DNA of 64,000 nt from Candidatus Baltobacteraceae bacterium (GTDB lineage Bacteria > Vulcanimicrobiota > Vulcanimicrobiia > Vulcanimicrobiales > Vulcanimicrobiaceae). The position numbers and the translations under genes were made by a program. Shown one piece after another: positions 53,661-61,268 of this stretch. The stretch is from assembly GCA_035502855.1 (NCBI GenBank), contig DATJTX010000014.1, forward strand, positions 1-64,000. Reading direction: 5' to 3'. The stretch's first letter is position 1. Each line of letters begins with the position of its first letter. The notes below the pieces were generated by a model. That model was not told the DNA's origin. It searched no databases and worked only from the letters and a program-made list of their open reading frames with translations.

Positions 53661-54298
53661 CGGAGAAGGCGTTTCGCCTCGACTTCTTCATCGCGCTTGC
53701 CGCGCTGCTCGTCAGCGCGCTGACTGCAGCGACGCTGGTGTATCAAACACATGTGATCGGTCAGCAGTACGCGGCTACGATCTGGCCGTACATAAGCTCC
53801 GACAGTGGTATGTCGCCGACCGGTCTGAGCCTGCGCGTCGTGAACGACGGCCTCGGCCCCGCGCTCGTGCAATCGGCGCAGCTCATCGTTGACGGCAAGA
53901 ACGTTCCGGGTTGGGGCGACTTCTTTCACGCGTTGCTGCGGGATCAAAAGACGCGCGCGTACTTTGAGCAGAAAACCGCTGACGTTCTCGCGGGCAAGCC
54001 CTTCACCGGATCGATCGCAACGTCTTCCCTCGGGCCCGGCACCACGATACGACCCGGCGATTCGATGACGCTGATCCGGATGGAACTGCCCGGAGCGCCG
54101 ATCGACACGATGAAACGCCACACCATTGGTCTGAAGCTCTGCTATTGCTCGCTGAACAAGAGCTGCTGGATACTCGATACGACCGTCATCAAAACGCCGC
54201 AGGAAACGCGTCCCGTTGCCACCTGCCCGAACCCCACATCGATCGCCGCACAGCCGTTCATGTCCCCTTCTGCGCCCCCGCGTAAAAAATCACTTTGA
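53657..54298 (+). CDS. Membrane-anchored hypothetical protein, 213 aa
   Basis: One N-terminal helix (LDFFIALAALLVSALTAATLVYQ, residues 8-30) anchors a beta-rich outside domain (SLRVVNDGLGPALVQSAQLIVDGK, TIRPGDSMTLIRMEL). A Cys-containing strand region (LKLCYCSLNKSCW) and a Pro-rich tail follow. I do not recognise a characterised family. ATG 53657 overlaps the kamA stop. Its 3' end overlaps the convergent DUF5916 gene by 41 bases, so the Pro-rich tail may be a recent extension. Confidence 0.7.
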   Translation: MTEKAFRLDFFIALAALLVSALTAATLVYQTHVIGQQYAATIWPYISSDSGMSPTGLSLRVVNDGLGPALVQSAQLIVDGKNVPGWGDFFHALLRDQKTRAYFEQKTADVLAGKPFTGSIATSSLGPGTTIRPGDSMTLIRMELPGAPIDTMKRHTIGLKLCYCSLNKSCWILDTTVIKTPQETRPVATCPNPTSIAAQPFMSPSAPPRKKSL

Positions 54299-56300
54299 AG
54301 ATCGCCTGTGGGACGGTCGTGAGCGTGTTCGGATCGCCGTACGCGAGGTAGAACTCGTAATCACGCAAGCGCAGGTGATAGGCGACTGACACGTTCGCGC
54401 ACACGCCTTCGCAATCGCCGCCGCCGTTCGGATCGGGAGGCATTCCGGTGATCCGCCGTACGCCGATCGCGAGAGACGAATCGCGGTCGATTTGATAGCT
54501 GTAACTCACGTCGTCGAACCACTGGGCGTTATCGGGCGCTTTGCCGTCCATCCACTGCTGGGTGCTGTCGACCGTAAACGTCAGCAACCCGCGTGAGCCG
54601 ACGCGCATCGTCGTCGTGCGATACCACGTATCGAGCCGTCCGAGACCATAGCGTCCCGTGTAGTATTGGATCTGCGTCGGCGTGGCCGACGACCCGTGCG
54701 AGGGGAAGTTGCTCATGTTGTTCTGCGTGCCGCTGTGAAATGTCACACTGAAACCTGCGCTCTGCGAGACCGGCTCGAGCGTGGGGCCGAAGCGCCAATA
54801 GTCCGATCCGGTAAAGAGCTGCAGGTCCCACGTGCTCTTGGTCAGCACGTCGAGAAGCAGTTGCGTATCACTCTGCGCTTGTCCGTACGCGACGCCCGCG
54901 TAGCTGTCGCGAAAAACGTCGATACCGGCTGAGAGAAGCTTGTCGTTTCCGTCGAAGGTCCACACCCGCGCCGAGTAGACGCCGTAGCCGGCGAGGCCGG
55001 GATGCGAGTCGAAGCCGTCAACCGGATTGAACTGGCTCCCGACCTTGCGCATCGACCCAAAGAGCGCGAAGTGCTGGTTGCCCCAGCCGCCGCCGCCGTC
55101 GATCCAGTTTCCCTGCGAGGGATCGGTCACGAGCGCGCCCGTCTCTTGCGCATCGTTGAGGTACGCGCTCAGATACTTGCCGTTCCACCAACTCAACCCC
55201 CCTTGGCTGGTCGCGTCGGTAAGGCCCGGCAAATCCGTCAGCACGTGTTGGAAGGCGGCGTTCCAGTGCGTGTTGGGCGACATGTAGTTCAGCGCCGCCG
55301 CGGCGTCGGTGCGGTCGTCGCCGATCGCGTCGAAGGCTGCCAAGCCGAACTCACCCTGGCGGCCTTCGAACGCATAGCCTTCGCGCGGCGTCGGGATCGC
55401 CGGCGTGTAGAGCGTCGTGCGGAAGCCGTTGCACACGTTGCAGTTGAAAGCGTCGTAGTAACTCGCCGCTTGGGTGAAAAACGGCCGCACTTCGCTGTAG
55501 GTGCGTTGGAAAACGGTCGGTGAAATCGACTGCTGGTCGAGTTCGACGTTCGAGTAGTCCGGGTGAAAGGTCCCGAAGAAGGACGCCGTCTGCGCTACCG
55601 GGATCGAGAAATCCATGCCGACGCGCGAGGTGGCGCCGCCGATCGTGCGGCTTGCTCCTTCGGCCAGCGCGTACGGGGCGACGCGCGGCTTCGGCAGCGG
55701 CGCGCGCGCGACCAGCGGGAAATCTGCGGTACCCGCGCGGGCGGCATCGTCCGGATTCGTTTGCGCCGTATCGTACGACCAAACGTCGAGCGCTCCGGTG
55801 GTGCGGACGTACCGCACGAATTGGAGCCGCCATTTGCCGGCGTGCGCGCCGTGAATGACCGCGAGGGGGATCACCATCGAGACTGTGTAGCCGTCGGAGG
55901 TGAGCTTGCCGTGCGTTTGCCAGTGCGGCGAAAAATTCGCGTTCTCGGTCGAAGCCTCGTTGTGCGCGCCGATCGGATTGGATTCGAACTGATACTGGAA
56001 CCCGGCCGGGCCGGTCGGCCAGAGATCGACCCACACCGCGTCGTCGCTCCAGGCGAGGCCGCCGTTGAAGTTGCTGCCGCCGCTTACCGTATCGTCGACG
56101 TGCTGCGTCGCCACGATCGGAGTGCTTTGCTCCGCGTCGAAGCGCACGTAGAGAAACTTCCCGTCGCTCCACACGTAGACGTCGGTCTCATCTCGAGCAG
56201 GCCGCGCTGAGTTCACGTCCCACCTCAAACTGAGGTGCGCCGCGGGCGGCGCCGTCGGCACGGCGAACGTGCTGATCAACGCGAGCACCGGTGCGATCAC
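54258..56300 (-). CDS. CBM9-like plus DUF5916 outer-membrane-type protein
   Basis: 680 residues. A signal peptide is followed by a carbohydrate-binding family 9-like domain (about 20-190: DETDVYVWSDGKFLYVRFDAEQ, DAVWVDLWPTG, YTVSMVIPLAVI). The C-terminal region (about 210-680) has the DUF5916 pattern (GMDFSIPVAQTASFFGTFHPDYSNVELDQQSI in blocks; FFTQAASYY) with strand-rich, aromatic-ending repeats typical of an outer-membrane barrel. It ends YHLRLRDYEFYLAYGD...KVIFYAG. ATG 56300 overlaps the pentapeptide-repeat gene by 4 bases, placing it last in the blaI-led operon. Substrate unknown. Confidence 0.8.
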   Translation of the reverse strand: MIAPVLALISTFAVPTAPPAAHLSLRWDVNSARPARDETDVYVWSDGKFLYVRFDAEQSTPIVATQHVDDTVSGGSNFNGGLAWSDDAVWVDLWPTGPAGFQYQFESNPIGAHNEASTENANFSPHWQTHGKLTSDGYTVSMVIPLAVIHGAHAGKWRLQFVRYVRTTGALDVWSYDTAQTNPDDAARAGTADFPLVARAPLPKPRVAPYALAEGASRTIGGATSRVGMDFSIPVAQTASFFGTFHPDYSNVELDQQSISPTVFQRTYSEVRPFFTQAASYYDAFNCNVCNGFRTTLYTPAIPTPREGYAFEGRQGEFGLAAFDAIGDDRTDAAAALNYMSPNTHWNAAFQHVLTDLPGLTDATSQGGLSWWNGKYLSAYLNDAQETGALVTDPSQGNWIDGGGGWGNQHFALFGSMRKVGSQFNPVDGFDSHPGLAGYGVYSARVWTFDGNDKLLSAGIDVFRDSYAGVAYGQAQSDTQLLLDVLTKSTWDLQLFTGSDYWRFGPTLEPVSQSAGFSVTFHSGTQNNMSNFPSHGSSATPTQIQYYTGRYGLGRLDTWYRTTTMRVGSRGLLTFTVDSTQQWMDGKAPDNAQWFDDVSYSYQIDRDSSLAIGVRRITGMPPDPNGGGDCEGVCANVSVAYHLRLRDYEFYLAYGDPNTLTTVPQAIFKVIFYAGAQKGT

Positions 56301-57025
56301 GGCAAGACGGCTCCGTCGAGTGCGTTATGTGAAGCATCGCGGAGCACCGCCGCGCCGACCGTCATGCACGCTCGCCCCCGATCGGCGGTACGATCGCACA
56401 ACTGCGCTCCGGTGAATACCGCGCCGCGCACCGATGCTCCGCGCAGATCGATGCACACGATCCCGCGCTGAATCGTCACGCCGTCGAAGTTGTCGGTGTT
56501 GTGCGCGCAGACCCAAGCGTTGCGAAAGGAGGCGCCGTCGACGCGCGCGTCGCCCATGTCCGCTCCGACCATGTCGTCGCCGTCGAAGCGCGCGTTCGTC
56601 AGATCTGCGCCGCTGAAGTTGGTGCCGACGAAGCCCGCACCGGTCAGATCCATTCCGCGAAGATCGACATTCGGCAAGTTCGCGCCGGTAAAGATCGCAC
56701 CATCGATCCGCGCGCCGGCCAACCGCACGCTGCGAAGGTTTGCACCTACGAACTTCGCGCCCCGCAGATCGGCGCCGCGCAGATCGACGTCGTTCAGATT
56801 CGAGCCGGTCAGGCGCGCGTCTCGCAGATCCGCATCGCTCAGATTGCTGTCGCGCAGGTTCGTCCCCACCCAGTCTACGCCGCGCAAATCCGCGCCGTGT
56901 AAATTCATCTGGGATAGGTTGCATCCGGTGCAGCGTGCCGGGAATGACGTTTGCGCTCCGACGATGGCGATCGATGCGCCCATCAGCGCCCCTGCCAGAA
57001 CCAGGATCCGAAATTGCGAGGTCAT
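56297..57025 (-). CDS. Secreted pentapeptide-repeat protein
   Basis: A signal peptide (FRILVLAGALMGASIAIVGAQ) is followed by about 35 pentapeptide repeats of A(D/N)LxG type (DLRGVDWVGTNLRDSNLSDADL and on), which fold as a right-handed square beta-helix. The repeat starts with CTGCNLSQMNL, the same CxGC(D/N) opening used twice in the neighbouring membrane protease (CSGCDFSK, CRGCDLER). Two Cys near the C-terminus (WVCAHN, GIVCID, QLCDRT, RACMTV region) may form disulfides. ATG 57025 has AGAAAGGCAGAG upstream. It lies 89 bases after the protease gene and overlaps the DUF5916 gene. Cytoplasmic pentapeptide proteins such as Qnr bind gyrase; export makes that role unlikely here. Confidence 0.85.
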   Translation of the reverse strand: MTSQFRILVLAGALMGASIAIVGAQTSFPARCTGCNLSQMNLHGADLRGVDWVGTNLRDSNLSDADLRDARLTGSNLNDVDLRGADLRGAKFVGANLRSVRLAGARIDGAIFTGANLPNVDLRGMDLTGAGFVGTNFSGADLTNARFDGDDMVGADMGDARVDGASFRNAWVCAHNTDNFDGVTIQRGIVCIDLRGASVRGAVFTGAQLCDRTADRGRACMTVGAAVLRDASHNALDGAVLP

Positions 57026-57114
57026 GTCGTCGCTCTGCCTTTCTTGCTGCGCACGAGGGCAAAACGATGCCCGGGGACGTGCGTCCGTGGTCACGAGAGG
57101 AAGTGAAAGATTAG

Positions 57115-58992
57115 CTAAGGATTGCCGAGTCGGGCTCCGGAAAAGTCACAACCGATGAATTGCGTTCCCTTGGTGAGCGCACCGCGAAGATCGGCTTCGG
57201 AGAAGTCGACACCGTTGAACACCGCGTTGCTCAAGTTCGCACCGCGCAGATCGGCATGGCGCAGATCCACGCCGGTCAGATGGATCCCGCTCAGGTCGAC
57301 GCCGCTCAGGTTCGTACGCTCGAGGTCGCAGCCGCGGCAATGCGGGAGATATGCACGCAATTGCGACGGAGAGAGGCTGCGCGGGTCGAGATCGGCGCCG
57401 CTCAAGTTGGCGTCGTCGAAATTCGCGCCCTCGAGCCGCGCGTGATCGAGGTTCGTGCCGCTCAGGTCGGCGCCGACGAGCGACGCGTTTCGCAGATCCG
57501 CGTCCTCGAAGTCTGCGCCGCTCAAATTCGCGCCGTCGAAATTGGCGCCGCGCAGGTCACTGTGGCTGAAATCGGTTCCCGAGAGATTCGAACCCGCGAA
57601 ATTCTTTCCGGCGAGGCTTTGCTTCGAGAAGTCGCAACCGGAGCAGTTGAACCCCTTGGTAACGTCGGCAGCGGCAACGCGTACGTGCGGCACCGTGACC
57701 TTGACGCTCGGAACCGTGATGGTTATCTTCGGTACGGTGTAGCCGGTCGCCGGCATCGTGACGGTCAGCGGCCTGGTCGTCATCACGACCTCGGGGCGTT
57801 TCCGGGGGCGCGGGCTCGCCATCACCTCGGCCGCGACACGCGGCGCCTTCGCCGTAACCGCCGGGTGCGGCAGCGGCTTCAACGGTGCGCTTGCGATTGC
57901 GGGAAGGGCCGGCAGTGCAAATGCAACCACCGGTGTGAACGCGCGCGCCAGCACGTAGCCGGCAATCAAACCGATTGCTACCGCCACGCCGGTTGCGGGC
58001 GAGATCGAGGATCCGATCGCGCGGCCCGTGCGCAGGAGCCGCTCGATACGAATCGAGATGTTCTTGCGCGTCGTGAAGACGCCCGGCGCCGCGAGCGGCT
58101 GGTGCGGCCACGCCGTCATCTCGGCCATCTTGGTCAGACAGAACGCATACGAGCGCACCGCGCCGGTCAATTCGAGTACGTAATCATCGCAGGCGACTTC
58201 ACGTTCCACGTCCATCTGCCGCGCGATGAACCACACCGCGGGATTGAAGAACAGGAGGGCGGTGATCACACGTTGGAAGCCGTTCGTCCAATCGTCGTGG
58301 CGAAGCAGATGCGCGAGCTCGTGCAGACTGATTTGGTCGATCTCGTCCGGCCCGAGCCGGTCCAGCAAGTGCTGCGGCAAGAGCACCATCGCGTCGAACA
58401 AGCCGACCGCGACCGGCACCTCGGTCGCATCGGTGACGCAGATGCGCACGTCGCGATCGCGGGAACTCAAGCGCTGCCACTGCACCAGCTTGTCGCGATA
58501 CTCGAGCCCGAGCGGAAGAGAGTCTCGTTTGAGACGTTCGAGCCGCGTCAATGCGACGACGAGGCGAGCCACCAGCGCGAGCGCGGCAAGCACCCAGAGC
58601 CCGAAGAGCGCCGCGGTCGCGATCGACGGCGGGTTGACCGTCACTCGAGGCGCGCTCGGCAACGCAATCGTCTTGGCGGCGGGTGCGAAGCTGGGCGCTG
58701 CTGCATGCGCCGGCGCCGCTGCGTGCGTGCTGACCGTCTGCGTCGGCACCGGTGCTGCGGCCGGCGCGCTCGCGCGTTCATACACGATATGCGTCACGCT
58801 CGTCACCACCGGAATCACGACGACTGCGGCCAGTGCGAGCGTCCACGCCGCGTAGCGCGTCGATGCGTTCACTTTACGAAATACGTGCAGCGCGAGCCAG
58901 GTAAGCCCGGCGATTGCAATTCCCTGCCAGAGGCTGTTGACGAGAACGACGAGCGCGCCGCGGGCAATGAGGTCGAAAAGCGAGGGATTCAT
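57115..58992 (-). CDS. M56 (BlaR1/MecR1-like) membrane protease with pentapeptide-repeat domain
   Basis: 625 residues. Helices at about 10-36, 46-70 and 126-150; then the cytoplasmic zinc protease with HELAH (224-228) and a downstream Glu in REVACDD (265). A fourth helix follows (about 331-355), then a Pro/Ala/Lys linker (360-445), and from 449 a pentapeptide-repeat solenoid in two blocks, each opening with a CxGC motif (CSGCDFSK, CRGCDLER). In BlaR1 the part after helix 4 is the penicillin-binding sensor outside the membrane; here it is the solenoid. The partner BlaI-type repressor is 5 bases upstream. By analogy, a signal on the solenoid would switch on the protease, which would inactivate the repressor. 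The signal is unknown. Confidence 0.85.
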   Translation of the reverse strand: MNPSLFDLIARGALVVLVNSLWQGIAIAGLTWLALHVFRKVNASTRYAAWTLALAAVVVIPVVTSVTHIVYERASAPAAAPVPTQTVSTHAAAPAHAAAPSFAPAAKTIALPSAPRVTVNPPSIATAALFGLWVLAALALVARLVVALTRLERLKRDSLPLGLEYRDKLVQWQRLSSRDRDVRICVTDATEVPVAVGLFDAMVLLPQHLLDRLGPDEIDQISLHELAHLLRHDDWTNGFQRVITALLFFNPAVWFIARQMDVEREVACDDYVLELTGAVRSYAFCLTKMAEMTAWPHQPLAAPGVFTTRKNISIRIERLLRTGRAIGSSISPATGVAVAIGLIAGYVLARAFTPVVAFALPALPAIASAPLKPLPHPAVTAKAPRVAAEVMASPRPRKRPEVVMTTRPLTVTMPATGYTVPKITITVPSVKVTVPHVRVAAADVTKGFNCSGCDFSKQSLAGKNFAGSNLSGTDFSHSDLRGANFDGANLSGADFEDADLRNASLVGADLSGTNLDHARLEGANFDDANLSGADLDPRSLSPSQLRAYLPHCRGCDLERTNLSGVDLSGIHLTGVDLRHADLRGANLSNAVFNGVDFSEADLRGALTKGTQFIGCDFSGARLGNP

Positions 58993-58997
58993 GCGGG

Positions 58998-59378
58998 CTA
59001 CTTCTCCTCGTAACGTTCGATCAACGAACGCAACCGGGCAAGCTCCTCGTCCGAGGGCCGCTCGGACTCAATCAATCGTAGTGCCAGTTCGCCCGAATTG
59101 TTTCCAAAAAATTTCTCAACGACGTTTTTGACGGCGCTGCTCGCGGCGCGCTCGCGCGCGATCAACGGGCGATAGACGAACGCGCGCCCAGCCTCTTCGT
59201 GCGCGACATGCCCCTTCTGCTCGAGGATGCGCAGGGTGGTGAGCACGCTGTTATACGCGATCGGCGGCGGCGGGAGGGCTTCGGTCACCTCGGCGACGGT
59301 CGCGCGTTCGAGGCGCCAGAGCACCTCCATCACGCGGAGCTCGGCCTCGGTGAGCGTGGGCGAAGGGCGACGGGGCAT
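58998..59378 (-). CDS. BlaI/MecI/CopY-family repressor
   Basis: 126 residues. Winged-helix N-terminus (LTEAELRVMEVLWRLERATVAEVTEAL, YNSVLTTLRILEQKGHVAHEE) and a C-terminal dimerisation helix pair (VKNVVEKFFGNNSGELALRLIE, DEELARLRSLIE). Members bind operators over their own promoter and are cleaved by the M56 partner. The likely cleavage site region just before VEKFFG is present. ATG 59378 has a duplicated TTAGGAG element upstream. It is the first gene of the four-gene unit through the DUF5916 protein. Confidence 0.9.
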   Translation of the reverse strand: MPRRPSPTLTEAELRVMEVLWRLERATVAEVTEALPPPPIAYNSVLTTLRILEQKGHVAHEEAGRAFVYRPLIARERAASSAVKNVVEKFFGNNSGELALRLIESERPSDEELARLRSLIERYEEK

Positions 59379-59412
59379 GCGCGGATCTCCTAACTCCTAA
59401 TTCTTTAAGAGC

Positions 59413-59441
59413 AGAATACCCCGAGCGCGCCGTCTTGTCAA
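59413..59441 (-). promoter_or_regulatory. Sigma-70-type promoter of the blaI operon
   Basis: Minus strand: TTGACA (59441-59436), exactly 17 bases, TATTCT (59418-59413), then about 33 bases to the ATG with TTAGGAG in between. This is the clearest vegetative promoter in the window. The -35 lies over the last codons and stop region of the upstream exported-protein gene. Confidence 0.75.
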
Positions 59442-59454
59442 CTAATAACTTAGT
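59441..59454. promoter_or_regulatory. Inverted repeat over the blaI -35 (candidate operator)
   Basis: ACTAA-TAAC-TTAGT, perfect 5-base arms with a 4-base spacer, touching the -35 element. The position fits autorepression by the BlaI-type protein. The classical TACA..TGTA core of BlaI/CopY operators is not seen, so this would be a variant site. Confidence 0.45.
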
Positions 59455-60461
59455 TCACCGTAGGCCACCACCGGGCAGTTCACCACGAAGCCGGCCGGTT
59501 TGGCCTGCGCCGCCACTTCCCCGTAGTTGGTGAATCGCGTGCTCTGCGGCGCGGTTACGACCATCGCATTCCAAAGCGGGGCGTACGCGTTGGCCGCGTA
59601 GGGATGGGCCAAGTCCGGTGCGACCGAGAGCAGATTGAACGGCGAACCCACGCTCGCGGCGCTCGCGAGCGTTGCATCCTCGCCGAGCGGCGTGCGCAGC
59701 GAGAGATAGGCCAGCCCCTGCGGCGCATCGCCGGTCTGCGGTCCGTCGACGACGACGCCGATCGGAATCTGGGCGCTCGAGGCGGCCTTCGCCAGATTCG
59801 GCGTGTAGGTCGCACGCTCGACGGCGGCCGCTCCCGCATCCGAGGCTTCCGGGCTCAGATAGTAGACCGGTTTGTCGTCGAAGAAGCCGCGCGCGAGCGC
59901 AACCGTCACGGTTTTCTTCGCCGTATCGATCGCAAGCACGCGATCCTCGGTGTTGCCGTGCGTGGTCACGTCGAACGGTCCATCGCCGGTCGCGACGATC
60001 GAGGCGTTGAGCACGCCCGCGATTCCTTGCGCGCGAACGAACGGCGAGTATTCACGATCGGCGTTTCCGCCGGGCGTTGCCGACTGCGGCGGGAATCCGG
60101 CCGGTCCGGCGATGTACGTGCGCGCGGCGCTGAAGTCCGGCGCGTCTTCGAAGGTGTACGTGCCGTCGGAATTTTTGATCGCCCGCTGCGTTGCGGCGGC
60201 ACCGATCGAAGCCAGGCTTGGCGCAAAGTTTACGCCGAAACGCCTGGCCACACCGGCGTCCGACGCGTCGGTAATGATGTACCACACGGTCATGCCGTCG
60301 TGACGGCCGCGATAAAGCGGCAGCGTGGCAGTGTGGTTCGTGGTATCGACGGCGAGCGCGCTCGCGATCGTGAACATGGAATGCGGCAGCTGCGCCGCCG
60401 ATGCGGGCGCGAATCCGTAGATCGCGTACGCCGCTGCGACAAAAAGAGAAAAACGCTTCAA
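59442..60461 (-). CDS. Exported hypothetical protein, 339 aa
   Basis: I do not recognise the family with confidence. The signal peptide KRFSLFVAAAYAIYGFAPASA is followed by a beta-rich domain repeating the theme [36 protein letters not shown] / KTVTVALARGFFDDKPVYYLSPEASDAGAAAVE: two similar halves of about 150 residues that probably arose by internal duplication. No ATG lies near the signal. TTG 60461, 8 bases after GGGGG, is the likely start, and TTG 60470 is possible. The stop lies in the blaI promoter region. It ends 5 bases from the SUI1-like gene, so the two are likely co-transcribed. Confidence 0.65.
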   Translation of the reverse strand: MKRFSLFVAAAYAIYGFAPASAAQLPHSMFTIASALAVDTTNHTATLPLYRGRHDGMTVWYIITDASDAGVARRFGVNFAPSLASIGAAATQRAIKNSDGTYTFEDAPDFSAARTYIAGPAGFPPQSATPGGNADREYSPFVRAQGIAGVLNASIVATGDGPFDVTTHGNTEDRVLAIDTAKKTVTVALARGFFDDKPVYYLSPEASDAGAAAVERATYTPNLAKAASSAQIPIGVVVDGPQTGDAPQGLAYLSLRTPLGEDATLASAASVGSPFNLLSVAPDLAHPYAANAYAPLWNAMVVTAPQSTRFTNYGEVAAQAKPAGFVVNCPVVAYGELSY

Positions 60462-60466
60462 TTCGA

Positions 60467-60733
60467 TCAACCCCCAGCGATCTTGGCACGTCGGCCTTGT
60501 GTGAGAAACCATGCAACGATACGCTCGCGGTGGTCGCCTTGGATTTCCACCACGCCGTTTTTGCTGGTCCCTCCCGTGCCGCAGTGGCGCTTGAGCGCTT
60601 TGGCGATCTCGTCGGCCTCCGCCGGCGCCAGGCCATGCACCAAGCTGACGACGCTGGCTCGGCGGCGCTCGCGCGCGACGCGGATGACGCCGTCGGCGGG
60701 CATCCCGGGTTTGGGCATGAAATGCAATTCCAT
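60467..60733 (-). CDS. SUI1/eIF1-like translation factor (YciH family)
   Basis: 88 residues matching the bacterial SUI1 homologue YciH: VIRVARERRRASVVSLVHGL, KALKRHCGTGGTSKNGVVEIQGDHRERIVAWF seen as the CGTGGTSKNGVVEIQGDHR core, and a terminal QGRRAKIAGG. The family influences start-site choice and responds to stress. ATG 60733 gives the family N-terminus (MELHFMPKPG). Its start shares the CATG at 60731-60734 with the divergent LOG-family gene. Confidence 0.92.
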   Translation of the reverse strand: MELHFMPKPGMPADGVIRVARERRRASVVSLVHGLAPAEADEIAKALKRHCGTGGTSKNGVVEIQGDHRERIVAWFLTQGRRAKIAGG

Positions 60734-61268
60734 GGCTCGAGTCTGTATCTTTTGCGGCGCCCACGCCGGCAAGGACGAACGCTACCGTGCACTCGCGGCG
60801 GAGGTCGCCGGCGCGTTGGCGCAGGCCGGCTACGGCATCGTCTACGGCGGCGGCCGCGTGGGTCTGATGGGATCGGTCGCCGACGCGATGCTGGCGCGCG
60901 GCGGTGAAGTCATCGGCGTCATCCCGCGCACGATGGCAAGCAGCGAAGTGGCGCACGACGGCATTACGCGCCTACACGTAGTCGACACGATGCACGAGCG
61001 CAAGGCGTTGATGGCGCAATTGAGCGACGCGTTCATCGCGCTGCCGGGCGGATACGGAACGATGGACGAGTTCCACGAAATTCTGACGTGGCGTCAGCTC
61101 CGCGTCCACGACAAGCCGATCGGGCTGCTCAATAACGACGGCTACTACGACGATCTGCTCGCGCTCTACGCTCGCATGCGGTCCGAAGGTTTTATCTCGT
61201 CCGACGGTCGCCCGCTTTTCGCCAGCGGCGACCGCATCGAGGAGTTGCTCGAGGCAATGGGACTCTAA
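60732..61268 (+). CDS. LOG-family (TIGR00730) nucleotide phosphoribohydrolase
   Basis: 178 residues. Rossmann-type fold with MARVCIFCGAHAGKDERYR, YGGGRVGLMGSVADAML and the signature LPGGYGTMDEFHEILTW. Characterised members release adenine or cytokinin bases from nucleoside 5'-monophosphates. They are often mis-annotated as lysine decarboxylases, and no PLP site is present. ATG 60732 is in CATG shared with the SUI1-like gene. It overlaps the convergent SCP2 gene by 4 bases. Confidence 0.94.
   Translation: MARVCIFCGAHAGKDERYRALAAEVAGALAQAGYGIVYGGGRVGLMGSVADAMLARGGEVIGVIPRTMASSEVAHDGITRLHVVDTMHERKALMAQLSDAFIALPGGYGTMDEFHEILTWRQLRVHDKPIGLLNNDGYYDDLLALYARMRSEGFISSDGRPLFASGDRIEELLEAMGL

What the first reader, a model, noticed from the sequence alone, without database searches (positions are those of the whole stretch)
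54258..59454. BlaI + M56 protease with pentapeptide-repeat sensor + secreted pentapeptide protein: candidate undescribed envelope-sensing system
Seen: a BlaI-type repressor, then a BlaR1-like M56 protease (HELAH plus downstream Glu) whose region after the last helix, where BlaR1 has its penicillin sensor, is a two-block pentapeptide-repeat solenoid. A secreted solenoid protein with the same CxGC(D/N) block opening follows, then a CBM9/DUF5916 outer-membrane-type protein. Known: M56 proteins relay an outside signal and inactivate BlaI repressors. Inferred: the secreted solenoid or an envelope ligand docks on the solenoid sensor and derepresses the unit, including the DUF5916 protein.
Basis: partly seen in the sequence, partly recalled or inferred. 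Interest (0 to 1): 0.75.

Follow-up and report, generated by a model that had tools for sequence, protein, structure and literature searches.

The report
BlaI–M56 switch with solenoid sensor
A group of uncultured soil bacteria (Candidatus Eremiobacterota) carries a BlaR1-like membrane switch whose outside sensor is a pentapeptide-repeat solenoid instead of a penicillin-binding domain, encoded beside a matching secreted solenoid that in some relatives is fused to the sensor, and recurring promoter sites indicate that it controls an envelope gene set.

Summary
On the minus strand, 59378-54258 encodes BlaI, an M56 (BlaR1-like) protease with a periplasmic two-block pentapeptide solenoid, a secreted Cys-rich pentapeptide protein (sPPR) and a DUF5916/CBM9-like outer-membrane barrel. 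Three results go beyond the finding. (1) Two inverted-repeat operators, (C)TAA-N4-TTA(G), bracket the blaI promoter. About 90 copies of the first operator plus -35 occur in 57 of 99 family genomes (reversed control: 0). Outside blaI they precede stand-alone or divergent DUF5916 genes, stand-alone sPPR genes, DUF4097 genes and tiny ORFs, so DUF5916 and sPPR look like regulon members. (2) In three genomes of another family the sPPR carboxyl-terminal module is fused to the M56 sensor. (3) A new family of 35-42-residue 'FxGWGP' microproteins heads several of these operons. Best reading: a BlaR1-type proteolytic switch with a split solenoid receptor. The ligand and solenoid docking remain inferred. 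New variant of a known kind.

The parts
59440..59455 (-). operator O1, perfect inverted repeat AACTAA-GTTA-TTAGTT, running into the -35 box
   Evidence: coordinates; TAANNNNTTAGTTGACA found in 57/99 family genomes, reversed control 0; only 2 sites of the slightly shorter pattern in own genome
59436..59441 (-). -35 box TTGACA
   Evidence: conserved upstream of blaI across relatives
59413..59418 (-). -10 box TATTCT, 17 nt from the -35
59394..59411 (-). operator O2, CTCTTAAAGAATTAGGAG, just downstream of the -10
   Evidence: a second dyad follows within 70 nt of 65/86 sites against 2/423 nearby control windows
58998..59378 (-). BlaI/MecI/CopY-type repressor, 126 aa
   Evidence: Pfam PF03965 1.7e-30; adjacent to all 49 M56-pentapeptide genes
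57115..58992 (-). M56 (BlaR1-like) membrane metalloprotease with pentapeptide-solenoid sensor, 625 aa
58309..58323 (-). zinc protease motif HELAH (residues 224-228); further ligand candidate E263
   Evidence: H224, E225, L226, H228 and E263 invariant in 30 orthologs
57937..57999 (-). last predicted transmembrane helix (residues 332-352), then disordered Pro/Val linker 367-446
   Evidence: AF2 model
57124..57657 (-). sensor solenoid (about residues 446-623): CxGC block, helix 542-551, second CxGC block
   Evidence: Pentapeptide 6.8e-63; C450 and C453 invariant, C513, C533, C552, C555 and C615 nearly so; pLDDT mostly 90-96 in the first block and 81-95 in the second
56297..57025 (-). secreted pentapeptide solenoid protein (sPPR), signal peptide plus six invariant Cys and a defining C-terminal module
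   Evidence: Pfam Pentapeptide 3.4e-53; 27-member alignment
54258..56300 (-). CBM9-like domain plus DUF5916 outer-membrane beta-barrel, 680 aa
   Evidence: own operator when encoded outside the operon

Best explanation
A BlaR1-type signal-transduction unit with a split beta-solenoid receptor and an envelope regulon. Supported by sequence: BlaI is co-transcribed with an M56 protease whose post-TM4 sensor is a pentapeptide solenoid; two inverted repeats bracket the operon's own promoter; the same promoter-operator recurs before stand-alone or divergent copies of the operon's two downstream genes (DUF5916 outer-membrane barrel, secreted solenoid) and a few other genes. Inferred from the BlaR1/MecR1 family: BlaI dimers hold these promoters shut; a periplasmic signal received by the solenoid moves TM4 and activates the cytoplasmic protease, BlaI is cut, and the regulon opens. 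Inferred from the natural fusion, the strict linkage and shared architecture: the secreted solenoid is a detachable part of the receptor that associates with the anchored solenoid in the periplasm, where it completes or modulates the sensor (probably with feedback, since it is itself in the regulon). Rough odds: repressor-operator regulon 0.9; M56 acts on BlaI 0.8; secreted solenoid physically partners the sensor 0.45; ligand unknown.
For: Linkage: 49/49 M56-pentapeptide loci have blaI, 35/49 sPPR next, 35/49 DUF5916; non-pentapeptide M56 have sPPR 0/12, Fisher 5.5e-6, relatedness not corrected. Operators: some 90 strict sites in 57/99 family genomes, reversed control 0; second dyad at a fixed distance in 65/86, background 2/423; genomes with an M56 hit have a site 55/76, those without 2/23, hand tally. 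Regulon: of 86 sites about 55 precede blaI (two via DUF4097), 10 DUF5916, 6 stand-alone sPPR. Operons without DUF5916 in G074, G076, G077 and G085 have a DUF5916 divergent or elsewhere under the same operator. Fusion: in G018, G019 and G020 the sPPR C-terminal module ends the M56 polypeptide itself. sPPR module: 60 copies in 49 genomes, 48 within 4.5 kb of an M56, none in a genome without an M56 hit. Topology: AF2 model and BlaR1 match. Six invariant Cys in sPPR fit an oxidising periplasm.
Against: No experiment. No complex could be modelled (single-chain tool, both jobs used). sPPR is absent next to M56-pentapeptide in 14 of 49 loci (one a contig end, three fused, others without any module copy), so it is not essential everywhere. 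DUF5916 is also in the operon of 2 of 12 alpha-solenoid or other M56 genes, so it is not specific to the pentapeptide sensor. The operator pattern is shared with alpha-solenoid BlaI-M56 paralogs, so some sites may answer a paralog. The fusion genus belongs to a separate, deeper M56 clade.
Confidence: 0.65

Rival explanations
1. Same switch, but the secreted solenoid is only an effector (an envelope or surface protein) and never touches the sensor; the two solenoids resemble each other through a shared exported-pentapeptide ancestry.
For: sPPR has its own operator-driven copies; several M56-pentapeptide operons lack it; pentapeptide proteins match each other easily, as the many pentapeptide hits on plasmids show.
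Against: Fusion of the sPPR C-terminal module to the sensor in three genomes, no sPPR module without an M56 gene, none beside non-pentapeptide M56 genes.
Confidence: 0.35
2. The conserved periplasmic cysteines (CxGC pairs) make this a metal or redox sensor, with BlaI acting like CopY.
For: BlaI scores somewhat better to CopY_TcrY (8.7e-15) than to BlaI_of_BCL (2.8e-11), both far below cut-off; C450 and C453 invariant and five more Cys nearly invariant in the sensor, six invariant Cys in sPPR.
Against: No metal-handling gene recognised among the operon genes or classified regulon members; the second Cys of CxGC and the GCDF Cys sit where pentapeptide coils place small core residues, so structural disulphides or packing are enough.
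Confidence: 0.15
3. A beta-lactam or other antibiotic resistance switch of the classical kind.
For: BlaI-M56 pairing.
Against: No penicillin-binding sensor domain; no beta-lactamase or PBP recognised in the operon or classified regulon members.
Confidence: 0.04

Closest known systems
BlaR1-BlaI / MecR1-MecI of Staphylococcus aureus (PMC7593790; PDB 8exp-8ext)
   Same: M56 membrane protease with cytoplasmic HExxH domain, C-terminal extracytoplasmic sensor after the last helix, neighbouring BlaI repressor, repressor-type dyads at the promoter
   Different: Sensor is a pentapeptide solenoid, not a class D beta-lactamase-like domain; extra secreted solenoid; regulon of outer-membrane and secreted proteins; no beta-lactamase or PBP recognised
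M56-BlaI pairs of the same phylum with alpha-helical repeat sensors (e.g. L079, L085, L088)
   Same: Same operon layout, similar operators, sometimes DUF5916 downstream
   Different: Sensor is an alpha-type repeat (GVTPxYI...); never an sPPR neighbour here
Pentapeptide-repeat proteins (HetL, MfpA/Qnr, lumenal Rfr proteins)
   Same: Right-handed beta-solenoid fold of sensor and sPPR
   Different: Those named are soluble stand-alone proteins; here one copy is a transducer's sensor and another is exported with six invariant Cys
CopY-type repressors
   Same: BlaI/CopY family DNA-binding protein
   Different: Linked to an M56 protease; no copper genes recognised

Membership tests
BlaR1/MecR1-type M56 signal transducer | M56 domain with HExxH and downstream Glu | tested here: met
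   PF05569 4.7e-34; HELAH and E263 invariant or nearly so in 30 orthologs
BlaR1/MecR1-type M56 signal transducer | Cytoplasmic protease loop between TM3 and TM4, sensor outside after TM4 | tested here: met
   Predicted only: AF2 helices and BlaR1 fold match
BlaR1/MecR1-type M56 signal transducer | Penicillin-binding sensor domain | tested here: not met
   Pentapeptide solenoid instead; NCBIfam blaR1_generic matches the protease part only, 84.6 bits against a cut-off of 400
BlaR1/MecR1-type M56 signal transducer | Adjacent BlaI/MecI repressor | tested here: met
   49/49 loci
BlaR1/MecR1-type M56 signal transducer | Signal-dependent cleavage of BlaI | not testable with these tools
   needs biochemistry
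BlaI repressor | Binds inverted repeats at its own promoter | tested here: inconclusive
   Conserved paired dyads around the promoter; binding itself not tested
DUF5916 (PF19313) / CBM9-like outer-membrane protein | Pfam model match and CBM9 plus barrel fold | tested here: met
   Window protein below cut-off but 15/27 orthologs match; fold search finds CBM9 and outer-membrane barrels
Pentapeptide-repeat family (PF00805) | Tandem A(D/N)LXX coils | tested here: met
   sensor 6.8e-63, sPPR 3.4e-53

The most novel reading that the evidence does not exclude
A split receptor: the membrane-anchored pentapeptide solenoid of an M56 protease and a separately secreted solenoid assemble end to end in the periplasm to form one sensor (as in the natural fusions of genus g43), and the secreted half, being in the regulon it helps to control, closes a feedback loop on outer-membrane composition.
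Probability: 0.4. Interest if true: 0.78.

Novelty: new variant of a known kind. Interest (0 to 1): 0.62.

Why it matters
M56-BlaI pairs are known mainly from beta-lactam resistance. This shows, across many genera of an uncultured phylum, a variant with an exchangeable repeat-protein sensor, a dedicated secreted partner and a predicted regulon with recognisable operators. That makes it directly testable in a heterologous reporter and suggests how other orphan M56 proteins might be decoded: find the operator, read the regulon.

Tried and rejected
Literature: no paper in the held library joins pentapeptide repeats with M56/BlaR1 or peptidase M56, names Eremiobacterota with pentapeptide repeats, or mentions DUF5916. 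Plasmid search for M56-pentapeptide fusions: no record covers 80% of the query, and the listed best hits are pentapeptide-only, so spread outside the phylum is unknown. The DUF5916 name could not be confirmed from the window protein alone and needed orthologs and fold. Single origin of the pentapeptide sensor: the M56 tree needs at least two label changes, which may be two gains or one gain plus losses. Beta-lactam resistance considered and rejected (no PBP sensor or beta-lactamase). Cys/metal sensing kept as a rival only.
Full report
What is there. The window lies in a 3.33 Mb genome of Candidatus Eremiobacterota (G000, 96.6% complete; relatives' records carry that name). On the minus strand four genes follow each other: blaI (58998-59378), an M56 protease with a pentapeptide sensor (57115-58992), a secreted pentapeptide protein (56297-57025; the longest ORF starts further upstream at 57094, but the signal peptide starts at the ATG at 57023-57025) and a DUF5916-like protein (54258-56300). 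Spacing is operon-like: 5 nt between blaI and M56, a GTGA overlap between sPPR and DUF5916.

Domain identity. BlaI and M56 match Pfam strongly, and both pentapeptide regions do as well. The M56 model has three helices, a cytoplasmic-type protease fold, a fourth helix, a disordered proline/valine-rich linker and two well-predicted solenoid blocks separated by a helix. Foldseek gives S. aureus BlaR1 (8exq, 4.4e-7) for the protease half and pentapeptide proteins for the rest. The fourth gene misses the Pfam cut-off in this genome, but 15 of 27 orthologs hit DUF5916 and 6 hit CBM9, and its model resembles a CBM9 domain plus an outer-membrane barrel, with low global TM-scores.

Conservation. A phylum-wide search found M56 relatives in 105 of 149 genomes. 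I took DNA around 60 of them and annotated it with the window. Of 49 M56 genes with a pentapeptide sensor, all have blaI just upstream, 35 have a secreted pentapeptide gene next and 35 have DUF5916 in the same operon; three have a divergent DUF5916 beside the operon (two of these also have one inside it). Of 12 M56 genes with other sensors none has sPPR and 2 have DUF5916 (Fisher 5.5e-6 for sPPR; the genomes are related, so this is not a clean probability). Eight of those 12 carry alpha-type repeats (GVTPxYI...), so in this phylum the M56 sensor slot is often a repeat protein, with exchangeable type.

The secreted protein is a defined family, not just any pentapeptide protein: six cysteines are invariant in 27 members, and the C-terminal module (LC...C.DLRGADVRGADLRGA..C....C.PVDAATLR...) is specific. 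Searching with that module alone found 60 copies in 49 of 147 genomes; 48 copies lie within 4.5 kb of an M56 gene, and no genome with the module lacks an M56 hit.

Natural fusion. In three genomes of family f3 (G018, G019, G020) the module forms the end of the M56 polypeptide itself, after several CxGC solenoid blocks (L083, L084, L089). This is the best evidence that anchored and secreted solenoids act together. The reverse also occurs: in G074 a secreted pentapeptide protein carries the same kind of proline/valine linker as the M56 sensor (L072 194-769), as if it were a detached sensor.

Operators and regulon. Upstream of blaI two inverted repeats of the form (C)TAA-N4-TTA(G) bracket the promoter: the first runs into the -35 TTGACA, the second lies just downstream of the -10 (window 59440-59455 and 59394-59411). 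The strict pattern TAANNNNTTAGTTGACA occurs some 90 times in 57 of 99 family genomes and never in the reversed control. Among 86 distinct sites in fetched DNA, 65 have the second repeat within 70 nt, against 2 of 423 nearby control windows. About 55 sites precede blaI. Ten precede DUF5916 genes outside or divergent from the operon, and six precede stand-alone secreted pentapeptide genes (L131, L148-L151, L154); others precede DUF4097 genes (L136 by inspection; L141 and L160 by Pfam), an S9-type peptidase (L133) and tiny ORFs. In G074, G076, G077 and G085, where the operon lacks DUF5916 or is cut by a contig end, a DUF5916 gene stands elsewhere or divergently under the same operator. Genomes of the family with an M56 hit have a site in 55 of 76 cases, those without in 2 of 23 (hand tally). 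So DUF5916 and the secreted solenoid are predicted members of the BlaI regulon. BlaI binding has not been tested, and alpha-sensor paralogs use a similar operator, so some sites may answer a paralog. The own genome has only two sites of the slightly shorter pattern: this operon and one before a 56-residue predicted membrane peptide (L099).

How it works. Shown by sequence: the genes, their order, the operators, the shared regulon members, the fusion. Inferred from BlaR1/MecR1 (reviewed in PMC7593790): a signal outside is passed through the last helix to the protease, which removes BlaI. Inferred here: the secreted solenoid joins the anchored one as a detachable receptor part and, being in the regulon, gives feedback. 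The ligand is unknown; the apparent outputs (outer-membrane barrel, secreted solenoid, DUF4097, S9 peptidase) point to an envelope state rather than a beta-lactam.

Origin. In a tree of 61 M56 cores the pentapeptide label needs at least two changes; a main clade of 42 sits next to the alpha-repeat clade, and a second clade of 7 holds the fusions. Sensor swapping, or one gain with losses, both fit.

Microproteins. Several operators are followed by ORFs of 35-42 codons with a strong ribosome site and a C-terminus FxGWGP; F, G, W, G and P are invariant in 17. In genus g4 they are the first gene, closely followed by blaI; other copies precede secreted pentapeptide genes, an S9 peptidase or a GntR/YtrA-like regulator gene with a different operator. 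Eight pairwise comparisons give pN/pS 0.10-0.57, which indicates that they are translated. Matches with E below 1e-6 occur in dozens of genomes of the class; the two tested have no Pfam match and the paper search found nothing. Their role, whether leader, translational coupling or signal peptide, is open.

Verdict. It is a new variant of the BlaR1-BlaI kind, with strong sequence evidence for operon and regulon and moderate indirect evidence for a split solenoid receptor.

Noticed in passing
L171-L185 and others (e.g. L172:1442 -, L185:1486 -), upstream of blaI or sPPR genes: Family of 35-42-residue microproteins ending in FxGWGP, strong Shine-Dalgarno, often the first gene behind the BlaI-type operator and closely followed by blaI; pN/pS 0.10-0.57 in eight pairs. 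No Pfam match for the two tested, no paper found.
   Followed up: partly
L197, L199, L200 and L189, L196: FxGWGP microproteins also precede a gene starting (T/A)VDPRSGVPIYLQ, read as a GntR/YtrA-type regulator, behind a different inverted repeat (about GTACTAGTGTACTAGTAC), so the peptide recurs at the head of two kinds of apparently autoregulated regulator operons.
   Followed up: no
L099:7508 (G000:C21:257507), L132:719: Second copy of the operator in the own genome precedes a 56-codon ORF for a small hydrophobic peptide, ahead of what reads as a tRNA gene; also in the sister genome. Similar small ORFs in L137 and L138.
   Followed up: no
L077, L079, L080, L082, L085, L087, L088: M56 proteins whose sensor is an alpha-type repeat (GVTPxYI...LR..GY.LT), beside blaI with similar operators; two have DUF5916 downstream. 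The one scanned (L079) has no Pfam match for the repeat.
   Followed up: partly
L091, L093, L136, L158, L160, L162: DUF4097-like genes under the same operator, in several cases directly upstream of blaI-M56 (Pfam tested for L141 and L160 only).
   Followed up: partly
L072:194-769 (-): A secreted pentapeptide protein with the same Pro/Val linker as the M56 sensor, as if a detached sensor domain.
   Followed up: no
G000:C39 152313-153971 (L100): A second BlaI-M56 pair in the own genome without a pentapeptide sensor.
   Followed up: no
window 59442-60956: DUF7482 protein directly upstream on the same strand; operator O1 overlaps its last codons.
   Followed up: no
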